Assembly: GCF_004664715.2 (NCBI RefSeq)
Contig: NC_051083.1
Coordinates: 101,709,661 to 101,773,660, forward strand
From: Peromyscus leucopus
Taxonomy: Eukaryota > Chordata > Mammalia > Rodentia > Cricetidae
Direction of reading: 5' to 3'
DNA: 64,000 nucleotides
Part shown: positions 19,403 to 25,515 of the stretch, piece after piece
Layout of the letters: the number at the start of each line of letters is the position of its first letter
How positions within the stretch are numbered: position 1 is the stretch's first letter
The notes under the pieces: generated by a model
Databases searched by the model: none
Told to the model about the DNA's origin: nothing
The model's input: only the letters and a program-made list of their open reading frames with translations
Program-made: the position numbers and the translations under genes

Positions 19403-19902
19403 NNNNNNNNNNNNNNNNNNNNNNNNNNNNNNNNNNNNNNNNNNNNNNNNNNNNNNNNNNNNNNNNNNNNNNNNNNNNNNNNNNNNNNNNNNNNNNNNNN
19501 NNNNNNNNNNNNNNNNNNNNNNNNNNNNNNNNNNNNNNNNNNNNNNNNNNNNNNNNNNNNNNNNNNNNNNNNNNNNNNNNNNNNNNNNNNNNNNNNNNNN
19601 NNNNNNNNNNNNNNNNNNNNNNNNNNNNNNNNNNNNNNNNNNNNNNNNNNNNNNNNNNNNNNNNNNNNNNNNNNNNNNNNNNNNNNNNNNNNNNNNNNNN
19701 NNNNNNNNNNNNNNNNNNNNNNNNNNNNNNNNNNNNNNNNNNNNNNNNNNNNNNNNNNNNNNNNNNNNNNNNNNNNNNNNNNNNNNNNNNNNNNNNNNNN
19801 NNNNNNNNNNNNNNNNNNNNNNNNNNNNNNNNNNNNNNNNNNNNNNNNNNNNNNNNNNNNNNNNNNNNNNNNNNNNNNNNNNNNNNNNNNNNNNNNNNNN
19901 NN
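19403..19902. other. Assembly gap (exactly 500 N)
   Basis: Exactly 500 N, which suggests a fixed-size placeholder rather than a measured gap. By L1 layout it should contain most of the ORF2 reverse transcriptase, about 2-3 kb if the L1 were intact. The two long minus frames of X across it are artefacts. Confidence 0.99.
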
Positions 19903-21413
19903 TATGGGAAAAAAAACCCAGGATAGCTAAAACTATTGTGAACAATAAAAGAACTTCCATGCATATCACCATCCATGATTTCAAGCTGAGCTACAGAGTT
20001 ACAGTAATAATAAAAAACATGGTATTGGCATAAAAACAGCCATGTTAATCAATAAAATTGAATTGAACACCCAGACATAAATCCACACACCTGTGCACAT
20101 CTGATTTTTAATAAAGAAGCCAGAAATACACAATGGAAAAATGACAGAATCTTCAACAAATGGTGCTGGTCCTACTGGATGTCTGCTTGCAGAAGAATGT
20201 AAATAGATCCATATTTATCATCCTGCACAAAACTCAAGTACAAGTTGATCAAAGACCTTAGCATAAAACCAGATATACTGAACCTGATAGAAGAGAAAGT
20301 TGAAGAATAGCCTTGAACGCATTGGCACAGAATCCAACTTCCAGAACAGAATACCAATTGCACAGACACTTAAGAACAACTACCAATAAATGGGACCTCA
20401 TGAAACTGAAAAGCTTGTGTAAGGCAAAGGATACCTACCATCAATCAGACAAAGTGGTAGCCTACCGAATGGGAAAAGATTTTCACCAACTCCACATCCA
20501 ATAGAGGGCTAATATCAACAATATATAAAGAGCTCAAGAAACTAGACATCAACTAATCAACAATCCAATTTTTAAAAATGGGGTACAGATCTAAAGAGAG
20601 AATTCTTTAGAGTAATCTCAAATGGCTGAGAAATACTTAAAGAAATGTTCAACATCCTTAGCAATCAGGGAAAGGCAAGTCAAATGACTCTGAGATTCTA
20701 TCTTACATATGTCAGAAAGGATAAGATTGAAAACACAAGTAACAGCTCATACTGTCGAGGATGTGAAGGAAGGGGAACACTTCTCCAGTGCTGGTGGGAA
20801 TATAAACTGGTACAACCACTGTGGAAATCAATATGGAGCTTCCTCAGGAAACTGGGAACCAAGCTACCTCTAGACCCAGCCATACCACTCTTGGACATAT
20901 ACTCAAAGGATGCTCCATCATACCACAAGGATACTTGCTCAACTATGTTCATAGCAGCTTTTATTTATTTGTAATAGCCAGAAACTAGAAATAATCTAAG
21001 TGTTCCTCAACAAAAGAATGGATAAAGAAAATGTGGTACATTTACAAAATGGAATGTTACTCATCCATTAAAAACAATGACATCAAATTTGCAGGCAAAT
21101 GGATGAAACTGAAAAAATTGTCCTGAGTCAGGTAATCCAGATCCAGAAAGACAAACAGGGTAGGTAGTCATAAGTGGATATTAGTTGTTAAGTAAATGAT
21201 AATCATGCTGCAATTCACAGACCCAGAGAGGCTAAGTAACAAGGACTCTAACGGGGGAATGCATCAATCTCATTGGGAAGGGGAAATAGAATATATTTTG
21301 TGGGTGGGATTGGGAATGAGGGGTCAGGGTACAGAGGGAGAGAGTACAGGGAGAGAAAACTGGAATTAGCAAGCATTTAGGGGATGATGTGGACACCTAG
21401 TACAGTGGAAAGT
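19903..21413 (+). pseudogene. L1 ORF2 C-terminus and start of 3' UTR
   Basis: Contains in order the 'aatggtgctgg' region, 'NKWDLMKLKSLCKAKDTYHQ' and the frame 20645-20974 with 'LWKSIWSFLRKLG' and 'DPAIPLLDIYSKDAPSYHKD', the conserved Cys-rich end of ORF2. The 3' UTR begins near 21240 and is cut at 21413 by the ERV. Frameshifts are present, so no active protein is expected. Confidence 0.92.
21408..21413. repeat. Target-site duplication, left copy
   Basis: GAAAGT; the identical hexamer is at 24564-24569. Six base pairs is the normal duplication for IAP/ERVK integrase. Confidence 0.93.
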
Positions 21414-21736
21414 TGCGACGCGCTCCTCGGCCAGCGAGGAAGAACGACCACCATGCGAGGATCCGTCTCAGAACACACTTTATTGGAGCGCCTCTTGATT
21501 AAGGGAGAGCGGGAGGTGAGGGGCCCCGAGGACTAAACTGCAGCTGCTTATATAGGGAATCAGGCAAACGTGCCGTACTGTGATTGGGTTCCGCCAGAAT
21601 GCTAACACGGGGAGCCACGGGATAGGCTGAGGACATAAGGCCAATTACCATACTCGTGCATCATAGCCAAATATGGAGTTGTTTACAGCTAGGCTACCAG
21701 GAAGCCAGCGCCATCTTTGAATAGCGGCTCCCTACA
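21414..21736 (-). repeat. 3' LTR of the IAP-type provirus
   Basis: 323 bp. By eye it differs from the 5' LTR at only three positions, near 21418, 21594 and 21608, all A/G or C/T transitions at or next to CpG. A TATA box (TATATAA, minus) is at 21548-21554 and an AATAAA signal at 21479-21484. Confidence 0.95.
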
Positions 21737-21750
21737 TCTCCCCCCTCTTT
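21737..21750 (-). promoter_or_regulatory. Polypurine tract
   Basis: AAAGAGGGGGGAGA on the minus strand, immediately next to the 3' LTR. This is the expected plus-strand primer for reverse transcription. Confidence 0.9.
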
Positions 21751-21865
21751 ATTAATTAAGCAGCAGGAGAGAGTATAGGTCTGATTTCTGCAACACAAGT
21801 ATTTCATCCGATCAGGTCCCCACCTCATGATGTGTTGACCGATCGAGGATGAGTTAACTGTGCGT

Positions 21866-22170
21866 AATTGCCTGCATACCTTCCCGAGTGCAATGGACCA
21901 ACCAGTCCCTGGGGTGCAAAGGCTATGCATGTAACAATTGTCCACATACCTTCCCATGTGCAATGGACTAACCAGTCCTAAGGGTGCAAAGGCTATGTGA
22001 CTCCATATGCAGTCAGACTTGCTCTCCTTGAAGGAAGGAAAATGACCTACACTTCAAGTGCAGTGCACAAGCCTGGCATCCTGTGCTCAATACAAGTATG
22101 TGAAAGCTGTCCACATACCTTCCCGAGTGCAATGGACTAACCAGTCCTGGGGGTGCAAAGGCTGTGTGGA
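21866..22170 (-). repeat. Three copies of a ~62-70 bp repeat between env and the polypurine tract
   Basis: Block 'cataccttcccgagtgcaat' ... 'ggtgcaaaggct' occurs at about 21871-21930, 21941-22000 and 22110-22170. The first two are 70 bp apart and the third is separated by about 107 bp of other sequence. It lies just after the env remnant and contributes no clear open frame. Confidence 0.85.
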
Positions 22171-22860
22171 TATTAGGTATCTGGGGGGAGGCGCCACACT
22201 CCAAAGCGGCTAATGCTTGAGTGATAATGACCTTGTCCTTTTTTGTTCGTGCTCGCAAACGGCAGACCAACCACAGACAAAACACGCATCCTCCAAGGCA
22301 GCATGCCAAAAATATACCCTACCCCCACCCATTCTAAACAGGGAAAAGGTAGAAGCAATCCAGGAGGACAGTCCCTCTGCCATGCTGAGGTCCACTTGTG
22401 TGGAGTTGATGGTCACCACCGCCACTCTGTTTTTCCAGCGTCTCTTCAAATTCTCCAGACCAATTTCCTATAAGATAACTGGACAATTGTTTAGACAAAT
22501 TCGCTGCTCAGGAACCATTCTGGAACTGCACACTAGTGACACACAAACCAGGCATTCTCCACTCACAGCCCAATTGGGCCAGCTGCCAAAGGATGGCAAC
22601 TTGTTCTTGTACCAAGTCAATGCACTGGTTAAGCACCATAAGGCCACCTTTCAACTGTGCATTTAGGGAAGTAGAGGTATGAAGGATAGTTTGGAGCCAT
22701 CAACTCCTTCCACCTGAAGAGGCTGAAATGGCCAACCCTGCATCTCTGGAGACAGGGACCAGCTGCAGCAGTTTGAACCTCCACTGCAAAGGTGATGCCT
22801 AGCACCTGGCCCCCAGCCAGCACAAGGATTCCCCATAACCTCTCTGAGAATGATTAGAAT
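22150..22860 (-). pseudogene. env transmembrane (TM) remnant of the ERV
   Basis: Minus-strand frames across this stretch contain a class II ERV TM-like series: a heptad-type stretch with 'QEQVAILWQL' and the following C-rich turn (near 22560-22620), a stretch with 'SSYLIGNWSG' near 22465, a hydrophobic membrane segment near 22310-22370 and a short basic cytoplasmic tail near 22220-22270. Env TM anchors and fuses retroviral envelope. Several stops and frameshifts break it, the SU half is missing, and the upstream edge is a deletion junction with gag at about 22860. No functional envelope can be made. Confidence 0.7.
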
Positions 22861-24029
22861 TCTCCCTTGTGCAGCTCGTGTGGCTGCAAGGACTGCTGCC
22901 GCTAGGCCAGCATTACTTAGCGGTCCCCCAATTTCCCGACAGGCTTTTAGCCAAGCTTCTAATCCTTTCCTTTCCACGGGGTAATAGCTCTTCGACATTC
23001 TTTTGTGCTCTGCTCATACACTAGTTGTTGAACCAGAGGCATATCTGTTTCTACGTCACCAAATATCTTTCCTGCTGCCTCCATCATTCTAGCTACGAAA
23101 TCTGAAAAAGGTTCATTCGGTCCCTGAATGATCTTAGTCAAATTCCCTGATACTTCTCCTTTATTTGGTAATGATTTCCAAGCTTTAGAATAAATCTCAT
23201 TTATCTGTTGATAAACTTCAATAGGATTTGCTGTCTGATTTACGGTCCATTGTCTTTGACCCAGTAGCATGTCAACCGTCCATTGTGGTCGATTATTCTG
23301 GAGGTTGATTCTAGCTTGTACCTGGGATCTATCTGTAACTATAGATTTGAAATCCAGATACTGTCCTGTAGTTAAACATGCTCTGGCTATTTCGAACCAA
23401 TCTGTTGGAGTCATACCCTGAATAGTGAGCCTAGTCAATAATGTTAAGGTATAACTGGCCGTTACTCCGTAGGCTCGAGCAGCCTCTACCAGGTCTTTTA
23501 ATTGTTTATAAGGCACAGGTTCATGATATCTGTTTGTTTGCGGATCTTCAAAGACTGGAAACGCGGACGCTAGCCGCGCCCAGGTGTCTCTCCTGATAAA
23601 ACGACAACCTTCACCTGTTTGCAGATACGAAGGTGTTGCCGGGGGTGGATGTGGTCCCGAAGGCGCCGTTGGTTCCACATTCACCCCAGCAGAAACATTA
23701 TAAGGAGGAGGTCGCTGCCGCCCATATCTCTCTTTTTTATATTCAGCAGCAGCTTCCTCTAAATTTTCCTCCTCATCTGGATCCAATTCATTGTCAGCCT
23801 TTTTAGGCCTACTTAAGTCCTCCCCTTTAAAGTCTAATTCTGATAGACTATCCTGGTGCTTAATTAATGCCTTGCGTCCCTTTCTAATGATTTCCACATT
23901 GCGTTCTTCCTTGAGACATGCATATATAAAACAGCAAAGAACAACAATTGTCATAGGAATGAACACAAAAGCAAGCACAAACGGATTAATCCCAGCCATC
24001 AGCATACCTGGAGAACTTACCGACGTCAT
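22861..24029 (-). pseudogene. gag remnant of the IAP-type ERV
   Basis: The open frame 24029-22959 (356 codons) starts in the leader repeat. A Met at 23999 (MAGINPF) is the likelier original start. A hydrophobic segment at residues ~17-40 (FVLAFVFIPMTIVVLCCF) fits the ER-targeting N-terminus of IAP Gag. A PPPY motif (RQRPPPYN) is at ~105-112, and a capsid with the major homology region (QGPNEPFSDFVARM) at ~305-320. The frame stops at 22959, but capsid-like sequence (GLEAWLKACREIGG) continues in the next frame (22998-22663), so a 1-nt indel lies near 22965-22980. Nucleocapsid zinc knuckles are missing. Gag builds the intracisternal particle; this copy lacks the part that binds RNA. Confidence 0.88.
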
Positions 24030-24113
24030 CGCCGTTCCTGGCGACTTACTGACGTCACCGTTCCTAGAGAACTCACCGACGTCACCGTTCCTGGAGAACT
24101 CACCGACGTCACC
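24003..24113 (-). repeat. 27-29 bp leader repeat, four units
   Basis: Four units of the type GTCGGTGAGTTCTCCAGGAA (minus) cover the leader just upstream of gag. Each carries a splice-donor-like core: GTAAGT (24015-24020 and 24044-24049) or GTGAGT (24071-24076 and 24098-24103). Each also has a GACGTC core, and one is a perfect CRE palindrome TGACGTCA at 24050-24057. The first Met of the long gag frame falls in the last unit. Confidence 0.85.
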
Positions 24114-24154
24114 GCTCCGTGTGCTGAGTTCTGAATCCTCTTCGACCCCTCACC

Positions 24155-24240
24155 TGGTGTCTGAAGTTTCCTTCCCTTCCCAGGTTTCGGTACCAGTTGG
24201 TGTCCGAAGTTTCCTTCCCTTCCCGGGTTTCGGCACCAGT
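24155..24240 (-). repeat. Tandem 43-bp duplication containing the primer binding site
   Basis: Units 24155-24197 and 24198-24240 are each 43 bp and differ at three positions, all transitions. The unit next to the LTR holds the perfect primer site; the second holds a copy with two changes at 24178-24195. Confidence 0.93.
24221..24238 (-). promoter_or_regulatory. Primer binding site, tRNA-Phe
   Basis: Minus strand reads TGGTGCCGAAACCCGGGA, complementary to the 3' end of tRNA-Phe, the IAP primer. It sits two bases (AC) after the LTR, as is normal. Confidence 0.93.
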
Positions 24241-24563
24241 TGCGGCGCGCTCCTCGGCCAGCGAGGAAGAACGACCACCATGCGAGGATCCGTCTCAGAA
24301 CACACTTTATTGGAGCGCCTCTTGATTAAGGGAGAGCGGGAGGTGAGGGGCCCCGAGGACTAAACTGCAGCTGCTTATATAGGGAATCAGGCAAACGTGC
24401 CGTACTGTGATTGGGTTCCACCAGAATGCTAACATGGGGAGCCACGGGATAGGCTGAGGACATAAGGCCAATTACCATACTCGTGCATCATAGCCAAATA
24501 TGGAGTTGTTTACAGCTAGGCTACCAGGAAGCCAGCGCCATCTTTGAATAGCGGCTCCCTACA
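24241..24563 (-). repeat. 5' LTR of the IAP-type provirus
   Basis: 323 bp, the same length as the 3' LTR. TATATAA is at 24375-24381 and AATAAA at 24306-24311 (minus strand). Transcription would run leftwards into gag. The 24564-24569 target duplication follows directly. Confidence 0.95.
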
Positions 24564-24569
24564 GAAAGT

Positions 24570-25515
24570 GGGGTATCTTGGAATCTTTGAGGGTGGCCTT
24601 AGTGAGGACTCCTAGTAATGGGGGACATGGAGCCTGAACTGGCCATCTTCTGTAACCAGGTAAGGCTACCAGTGATGGTACTGGGACACCAACAAAGCCA
24701 CAAAACTTTCTACCTACAATCTACCCTGTCTGAAAGTGCTCAGGAAGTGCTGGTGTAGAACTTGTGAAAGTGGCCAATGACTTATCTAATTTGAGGCCCA
24801 AGTCATGAAAGATATCCTATGTGGCACACTGCCTGGATGACCATGAAAGAAGACTCGATAGCTCAGAGACCTAGGGTAAAAAAAAAAAAAAAATCAATGA
24901 AATGATTCCTAATGATATTATGCTATATTCATACACTCATAAATTTGTGCCTAGCCTAAACATCAACAGAGATGCTTCCTCCAGCAAGCTGATAGGAGCA
25001 GATGCAGAGACTCAAAGTGAGACATTATGTGGAGAGTCTAAATTTGAGGTTTCCATTGGGTCCCTCCACTCAGAGCTTGGGGAACCCTGCAGAAGAAGGG
25101 GGAGGAAATAATTCAGGAGTTAGAGGGGATGGAGCACCCTAGGAGAACATGGTACACTGAATCAACTAAGCAGGCCTCATATGAGCTCACAAACACTGAA
25201 GCTGCAAGCACAGGGCCTGCACAGGTCAGCACCAGATTCTCAGCATATATGTTACGGCTGTTAGCTTGGTGTCTTTGTGGGAATCTTAATAGTGGGAGCA
25301 AGTGTGTCTCTGACTCTTTTGCCTGCATTTGGGACTCTTCCTCCTATCAGGATTCCTTGTCTGGCCTCCTTGTTTGGTTGCTGTCTCTTGGAGCCCTGTT
25401 CTTTTCTCAATGGAAACAGAGACAGGGGTGTGAAGGAGTTGGAAGAAGTACAGAGAGGAAAAACCATGATCAGAATGTAGTGCATGATTAAAGAATCTAT
25501 TTTCAATAAAAAAAA
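24570..25515 (+). repeat. Rest of the L1 3' UTR, right of the ERV
   Basis: Continues the L1 interrupted at 21413: 'ggggtatcttggaatctttg' through a run of 16 A at about 24878-24893 and a final part ending in 'ttcaataaaaaaaa'. The ERV sits between 'gtggaaagt' and 'gaaagtgggg'. Confidence 0.85.

What the first reader, a model, noticed from the sequence alone, without database searches (positions are those of the whole stretch)
21408..24569. Recent IAP-type provirus reduced to gag joined directly to env TM
The ends are all intact (two 323-bp LTRs, PBS, polypurine tract, 6-bp GAAAGT duplication), yet pro, pol, most of gag's 3' end and env SU are missing. The gag capsid passes into env TM-like sequence at about 22860. 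A clean, small (2.5-kb internal) gag-env form with intact ends suggests a non-autonomous lineage moved in trans rather than a decayed single copy. This is inference.
Basis: partly seen in the sequence, partly recalled or inferred. Interest (0 to 1): 0.8.

Follow-up and report, generated by a model that had tools for sequence, protein, structure and literature searches.

The report
Pol-less IAP-like retrovirus family in rodents
This is one copy of a recently multiplied, cut-down relative of mouse IAP retroviruses that kept gag and a scrap of envelope but no polymerase, and probably spread by borrowing enzymes from longer sister copies in the same genome.

Summary
The provirus lies on the minus strand at 21414-24563: two 323-bp LTRs (3 differences), GAAAGT duplication, PBS, PPT, and a gag-to-env join near 22860; NC, pro, pol and SU are missing. 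The join is not private: one genome search gave 24 full-span rows at 95% identity or more, and all 22 window-type loci examined, window included, have the same join. Of the 20 with two readable LTRs, 19 have an exact 6-bp duplication. Four loci have a sister join. Six other loci share LTRs and 3' tail but carry pol and only the last 84 bp of env, again with one shared join. The family thus has two complementary deletion forms; the pol-bearing one is the likely helper. Capsid variants shared among the 22 copies favour third codon positions (18/18/44), private ones do not (36/30/29), so Gag was under selection in the source lineage or its recombination partners. The kind is known (IAP 1-delta-1, ETn/MusD, deer-mouse nonautonomous ERVKs); the gag-env build and split family are the new parts. 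TM identity rests on motifs, not a library hit. Movement in trans is inferred.

The parts
21408..21413 (.). target-site duplication GAAAGT, left copy
21414..21736 (-). 3' LTR, 323 bp, TGTA...CGCA
21737..21750 (-). polypurine tract
   Evidence: sequence
21751..22229 (-). 3' tail with three diverged 71-bp direct repeats (21859-21929, 21929-21999, 22098-22168); also present in the pol-bearing form
22230..22663 (-). env TM remnant in broken frames: CX7C motif, membrane-span-like stretch; its last 84 bp also kept in the pol-bearing form
   Evidence: motif-based; no library match
22664..22860 (-). env-derived segment just 3' of the join; read in gag frame as a tail ending SFIPLLP
22859..22872 (-). 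gag-to-env join, identical at 22 of 22 window-type loci examined
22666..23013 (-). frame in which the capsid C-terminus continues across the join (116 codons)
22962..24149 (-). gag open frame, 396 codons; Gag_p24 at about 23157-23525, Gag_p24_C at about 22965-23144
23925..23981 (-). hydrophobic N-terminal stretch in place of matrix
   Evidence: Gag_p10 absent
24007..24118 (-). 4.1 copies of a 27-bp repeat in leader/gag start (GACGTCAC motif)
24155..24242 (-). two tandem 43-bp units, each with a PBS-like sequence
24221..24238 (-). primer binding site, matches tRNA-Phe 3' end (recalled)
24241..24563 (-). 5' LTR, 323 bp, 3 differences from the 3' LTR
24564..24569 (.). target-site duplication GAAAGT, right copy

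Best explanation
The locus is one insertion, roughly 1-2 million years old, of an amplified non-autonomous subfamily of an IAP-like betaretroviral family in a Peromyscus-like rodent. Template switching joined the end of the capsid coding region to sequence at about the SU/TM boundary, removing NC, pro, pol and SU. The RNA kept both LTRs, PBS, leader, 3' tail and PPT, so it could be packaged, reverse transcribed and integrated by enzymes made in trans by pol-bearing, env-deleted copies that share those ends. Shown: the shared join, independent insertions, the pol-bearing sister form, and codon bias of shared capsid variants. Inferred: the trans supply, packaging, the template-switch origin, the SU/TM placing, and the age (it uses recalled substitution rates).
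For: Junction search: 29 rows span the query (28 at 1-201, one at 2-201), 24 of them at 95% or more, with 40 of 104 candidates scored. 22 of 22 window-type loci have the identical join; exact 6-bp duplications in 19 of 20 with two readable LTRs; substitutions between LTRs 0-12, none in 4 of 20; flanks not alike. No match to L029 pol inside 25 gag-env loci, nor in the window or the fetched part of L059. The 40 LTR rows best matching the window LTR (of 834 candidates), matched to loci by coordinates, are 13 solo LTRs and 27 rows at 19 provirus loci: 12 gag-env, 6 pol-bearing, 1 short. L029 has RVT_1, RNase_H, rve, dUTPase, RVP and G-patch. All six pol-bearing loci share one pol-to-env join. Capsid selection signal.
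Against: No expression, packaging or mobilisation data. In L029 gag is split into three open stretches, and in the four partly fetched pol-bearing loci the longest open stretches are 439, 211, 292 and 392 codons (pieces cut by the fetch), so no copy seen here encodes everything. The capsid signal could come from gag imported by recombination with pol-bearing copies. Gag is broken in many copies, the window's included. TM codon bias is not significant (10/9/18, p=0.055). The capsid tree is almost unresolved, and the AU test does not reject one clade for the sister-join copies (p=0.21). The LTR control has few shared variants.
Confidence: 0.85

Rival explanations
1. Gag-tail acts in cis: the deleted form multiplied because its Gag, fused in frame to an env-derived tail, helps its own RNA, as reported for the mouse IAP 1-delta-1 gag-pol fusion.
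For: Shared capsid variants favour third positions, private ones do not. All three join variants seen (window type, 72 bp longer, 12 bp shorter) keep the gag frame into the same tail. The tail is open to its common stop in 16 of 22 window-type loci, 3 of 3 sister-join loci tested and the one 12-bp variant. 1-delta-1 cis effect: PMC6466679, section 8 part 1 of 2 read.
Against: Frame keeping in two further joins has a chance of about 1 in 9. The tail has only 4 shared variants, too few to test, and it is broken in 6 of 22 loci. Recombination with pol-bearing copies could explain the capsid signal.
Confidence: 0.3
2. A private deletion of one decayed provirus.
For: Gag frame of this copy is broken.
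Against: Join found at 22 of 22 loci examined with independent insertions.
Confidence: 0.01
3. An assembly misjoin or segmental duplication of one locus.
For: The assembly has gaps (N run 19403-19902 in the window).
Against: Different target duplications and different flanks of up to 200 bp at 28 two-LTR loci, apart from one 169-bp repeat shared by two.
Confidence: 0.02
4. The 22860-22230 stretch is not env TM but other non-coding sequence captured by the family.
For: No Pfam match for window pieces or for open pieces of four other copies, and no significant PDB match; no significant codon bias.
Against: CX7C motif, hydrophobic span and charged tail in order; three weak matches of one open piece to coronavirus spike stalks (E 0.03-0.34, beside one unrelated enzyme at 0.35) are at most consistent with a class I fusion protein; it sits before the PPT-bearing tail where env belongs.
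Confidence: 0.08

Closest known systems
Mouse IAP 1-delta-1 proviruses
   Same: Internally deleted IAP moved with gag and pol supplied in trans; deletion leaves a gag fusion (PMC6466679, section 8 part 1 of 2 read)
   Different: There a 1.9-kb deletion gives gag-pol; here gag joins env-derived sequence and pol is lost. L030 in this genome (gag start joined to RT) is the nearer match
ETn/MusD
   Same: Non-autonomous and coding sister forms (PMC6466679 passages)
   Different: ETn has no coding capacity; this form keeps a gag with signs of selection
Deer mouse nonautonomous ERVKs and mysTR relatives
   Same: Similar host; high-copy pol-less ERVKs; ERVs interrupting L1 (PMC10089650, abstract, sections 7, 8, 14 and passages)
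   Different: Those are described as lacking obvious coding capacity, and mysTR as lacking env. Whether this family is one of them could not be tested: no reference sequences held
Beta_Pman-ERV_cluster-5 / IAPE
   Same: IAP-like family with env about 60% similar to mouse IAP env (PMC10089650 passage); IAPE env is called beta-type (PMC3758190 passages)
   Different: Those have env; no copy with full env was seen among the 19 provirus loci sampled by LTR here. No sequence comparison was possible

Membership tests
IAP-like class II (ERVK) family | betaretroviral capsid closest to IAP-type Gag | tested here: met
   Gag_p24 hit; among the 120 relatives listed many named ones are 'IgE-binding protein-like', e.g. 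Apodemus, Microtus, Peromyscus (that this name denotes IAP Gag is recalled)
IAP-like class II (ERVK) family | 6-bp target duplication, TG...CA LTR ends | tested here: met
IAP-like class II (ERVK) family | tRNA-Phe primer binding site | tested here: inconclusive
   18-base PBS read; tRNA sequence is recalled, not fetched
IAP-like class II (ERVK) family | N-terminal hydrophobic stretch in place of matrix | tested here: met
   no Gag_p10 in the window, three other gag-env copies or two gag pieces of L029; best 19-mer at 2.4 or more in 27 of 28 loci (33 of 422 window frames reach 2.4 by chance). ER targeting in IAP is recalled
IAP-like class II (ERVK) family | pro with dUTPase and G-patch, pol with RT/RH/IN | tested here: met
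   in sister locus L029, not in the window copy
IAP-like class II (ERVK) family | intracisternal particles | not testable with these tools
   needs microscopy
IAP 1-delta-1 | gag-pol fusion | tested here: not met
   gag joins env-derived sequence
Beta-type env | two-cysteine CXnC (n 4-7) in TM | tested here: met
   CX7C in the piece 22511-22699; definition from PMC3758190 passages. That the piece is TM is itself motif-based
mysTR | pro-pol similarity to mysTR | not tested
   no mysTR sequence held
Trans-mobilised non-autonomous element | same deletion at many independent insertions plus a pol-bearing partner with the same ends | tested here: met
Trans-mobilised non-autonomous element | movement with enzymes supplied by the partner | not testable with these tools
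   needs cells

The most novel reading that the evidence does not exclude
The family works as a split retroelement: pol-bearing, env-less copies and gag-plus-tail, pol-less copies have multiplied side by side, each fixed by its own join, and the pol-less form keeps a selected Gag with an env-derived C-terminal tail that favours its own RNA.
Probability: 0.3. Interest if true: 0.65.

Novelty: new variant of a known kind. Interest (0 to 1): 0.42.

Why it matters
It gives a rodent that is probably outside Mus a dated, countable case of an IAP-like family broken into complementary deletion forms, and lets one ask whether a pol-less element gains from keeping its own Gag. The deer-mouse paper I read in part describes the abundant nonautonomous ERVKs as lacking obvious coding capacity. 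Here the capsid region shows signs of selection.

Tried and rejected
Private deletion and misjoin: rejected. Splicing as the source of the join: by eye, the sister join shows no AG before the shared env start, so not favoured. P0076 (Peromyscus maniculatus predicted protein) was first taken as proof of the window join; its junction residues fit the sister join instead, and a predicted intron is not excluded, so it is only supporting. TM under selection: third positions looked enriched with a frame set on another copy (20/9/8, p=0.013) but not significantly with the window's own frames (10/9/18, p=0.055); I report the latter. Low shared diversity of the env segment after the join (4 in 198 against 88 in 835 for capsid, 26 rows) stands, but CpG columns inflate the capsid count. 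Retroviral relatives in viral contigs: none. Leader fold: z -1.47, nothing notable. Rfam at gathering threshold: none. Pfam on four open frames of the window, two of them in the L1-like flank: none. Pol copy number by direct genome search did not complete.

Rows dropped before counts: L030 from CA; L015, L029, L030, L031 from TM; L029 left out of variant counts. 'Window-type' excludes L032-L035 and L059. Of the 23 loci behind the 24 high-identity rows, one (C24) was not fetched. Of five full-span rows below 95%, one is L032 and four were not fetched. Eleven further rows match the env side only, seven of them with the gag side about 80 bp away; three of these were fetched (L033-L035).

Full report
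WHAT IS THERE. The provirus lies on the minus strand at 21414-24563 between GAAAGT copies (21408-21413, 24564-24569). Each LTR is 323 bp and they differ at three sites, all transitions. The internal part is 2504 bp. Three per 323 gives about 0.9-2.1 million years with recalled rates of 2.2-5.3e-9 per site per year. Sense order is: 5' LTR; a PBS inside two tandem 43-bp units; a leader with 27-bp repeats carrying GACGTCAC; gag; the join; env remnant; a 3' tail with 71-bp repeats; PPT; 3' LTR.

GAG. The 396-codon frame holds Gag_p24 and Gag_p24_C and matches solved ERV-K and p27 capsids. Matrix is absent and a hydrophobic stretch stands in its place. A 19-residue stretch of that strength (2.4 or more) is found at 27 of 28 loci, in pol-less and pol-bearing forms alike; 33 of 422 window frames reach that value by chance. 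Gag_p10 is found in none of the family proteins scanned (window, L020, L027, L032, two pieces of L029) but is found in relative P0001. By E-value the best named relative is an Apodemus protein at 56% identity; by identity it is a Peromyscus maniculatus predicted protein, 87% over its 217 residues in the alignment, with a second at 69%. Seventeen host contigs whose lengths were shown measure 56-194 Mb and numbering runs to C24, which would fit a 2n=48 genus such as Peromyscus (recalled). The species is not shown. The window copy's gag frame breaks near 22960, and its capsid end continues in another frame across the join.

ENV. From about 22860 to 22230 broken frames show, in order, a hydrophobic stretch, a segment with CX7C, and a membrane-span-like stretch with a basic tail. 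No library confirms it. CX7C fits the beta-type motif, and IAPE env is called beta-type (PMC3758190, passages).

THE JOIN IS A FAMILY TRAIT. The genome search with 201 bp across the join gave 29 full-span rows, 24 at 95% or better at 23 loci, with only 40 of 104 candidates scored. All 22 window-type loci examined (20 fetched, L036, and the window) carry the identical join. Of these, 20 have two readable LTRs and 19 of the 20 have an exact 6-bp duplication; substitutions between LTRs range from 0 to 12, with none in four. L015 has one LTR; L036 was cut by my fetch; L011, the one without a duplication, looks like part of a tandem array; L014 is a three-LTR tandem. Flanks of up to 200 bp at the 28 two-LTR loci are not alike, apart from a 169-bp repeat in two. 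A sister join with 72 more bases occurs at L033-L035 and, by its spacing, L059. L032 is 12 bp shorter. All three variants keep the gag frame into one tail.

THE POL-BEARING PARTNER. L029, 6.5 kb, has the same LTRs, leader, gag and tail, then NC, dUTPase-protease-G-patch and an 886-codon RT/RNase H/integrase frame, and only the last 84 bp of env. L030, L055, L056, L057 and L058 share pol sequence with it at 96-98% and its exact pol-to-env join; the last four were read only about 2.4 kb inward from the 3' LTR. Pol frames in those four are interrupted as far as read, and gag in L029 is in three stretches. No match to L029 pol lies inside the 25 gag-env loci scanned (L026 has one 69% match outside its element), nor in the window or L059's fetched part. 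L030 also fuses the start of gag to RT in one frame. The 40 LTR rows (of 834 candidates) resolve into 13 solo LTRs, 10 with exact duplications, and 27 rows at 19 provirus loci: 12 gag-env (7 window join, 4 sister join, 1 shorter), 6 pol-bearing, 1 short form.

SELECTION. Among 22 window-type copies, capsid variants found in three or more copies fall 18/18/44 on codon positions 1/2/3 (p=7e-5), private ones 36/30/29; without CpG columns 13/8/29 against 27/19/25. Shared variants are 44 synonymous to 36 not, private 32 to 63, judged on the codons of one copy. The LTR control has too few shared variants (4/3/6) to be a strong control. The source Gag was therefore constrained, whether in the pol-less lineage itself or through exchange with pol-bearing copies. 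The capsid tree mixes the forms but is nearly unresolved. TM shows no significant constraint, and 11 of 24 copies share one stop in that region.

SITE. The insertion interrupts what I recognise as an L1 (recalled; Pfam found nothing in two of its frames): both flanks match, in order and at 68-73%, another copy at 43439-41600. ERVs interrupting L1 are reported for the deer mouse (PMC10089650, section 14 read).

VERDICT. A real, recent, amplified non-autonomous form with a co-resident pol-bearing partner. The kind is known. The particular build and the constrained Gag are the new part. I noticed no description of a gag-env form in the titles and abstract starts listed, or in the parts read of PMC10089650, PMC6466679 and PMC3758190; most subscription papers are not in that library, and I saw none of the original mys and mysTR reports.

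Noticed in passing
window 20400-21407 and 24570-25240: The provirus sits inside an L1-like 3' region; flanks are collinear with another copy at 43439-41600.
   Followed up: partly
L030:360-2768: Pol-bearing sister locus with the start of gag fused to RT in one 803-codon frame, a look-alike of mouse 1-delta-1.
   Followed up: partly
L014:1287-8102: Tandem LTR-internal-LTR-internal-LTR array with one target duplication outside.
   Followed up: no
L031:130-1631: A 1.5-kb form: leader joined to the last 250 bp of env and the tail, two LTRs, target duplication.
   Followed up: no
window 24155-24242: PBS region duplicated in tandem; fetched copies differ in how they align here and in the 27-bp and 71-bp repeats.
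   Followed up: no
window 19403-19902: Run of 500 N, an assembly gap.
   Followed up: no
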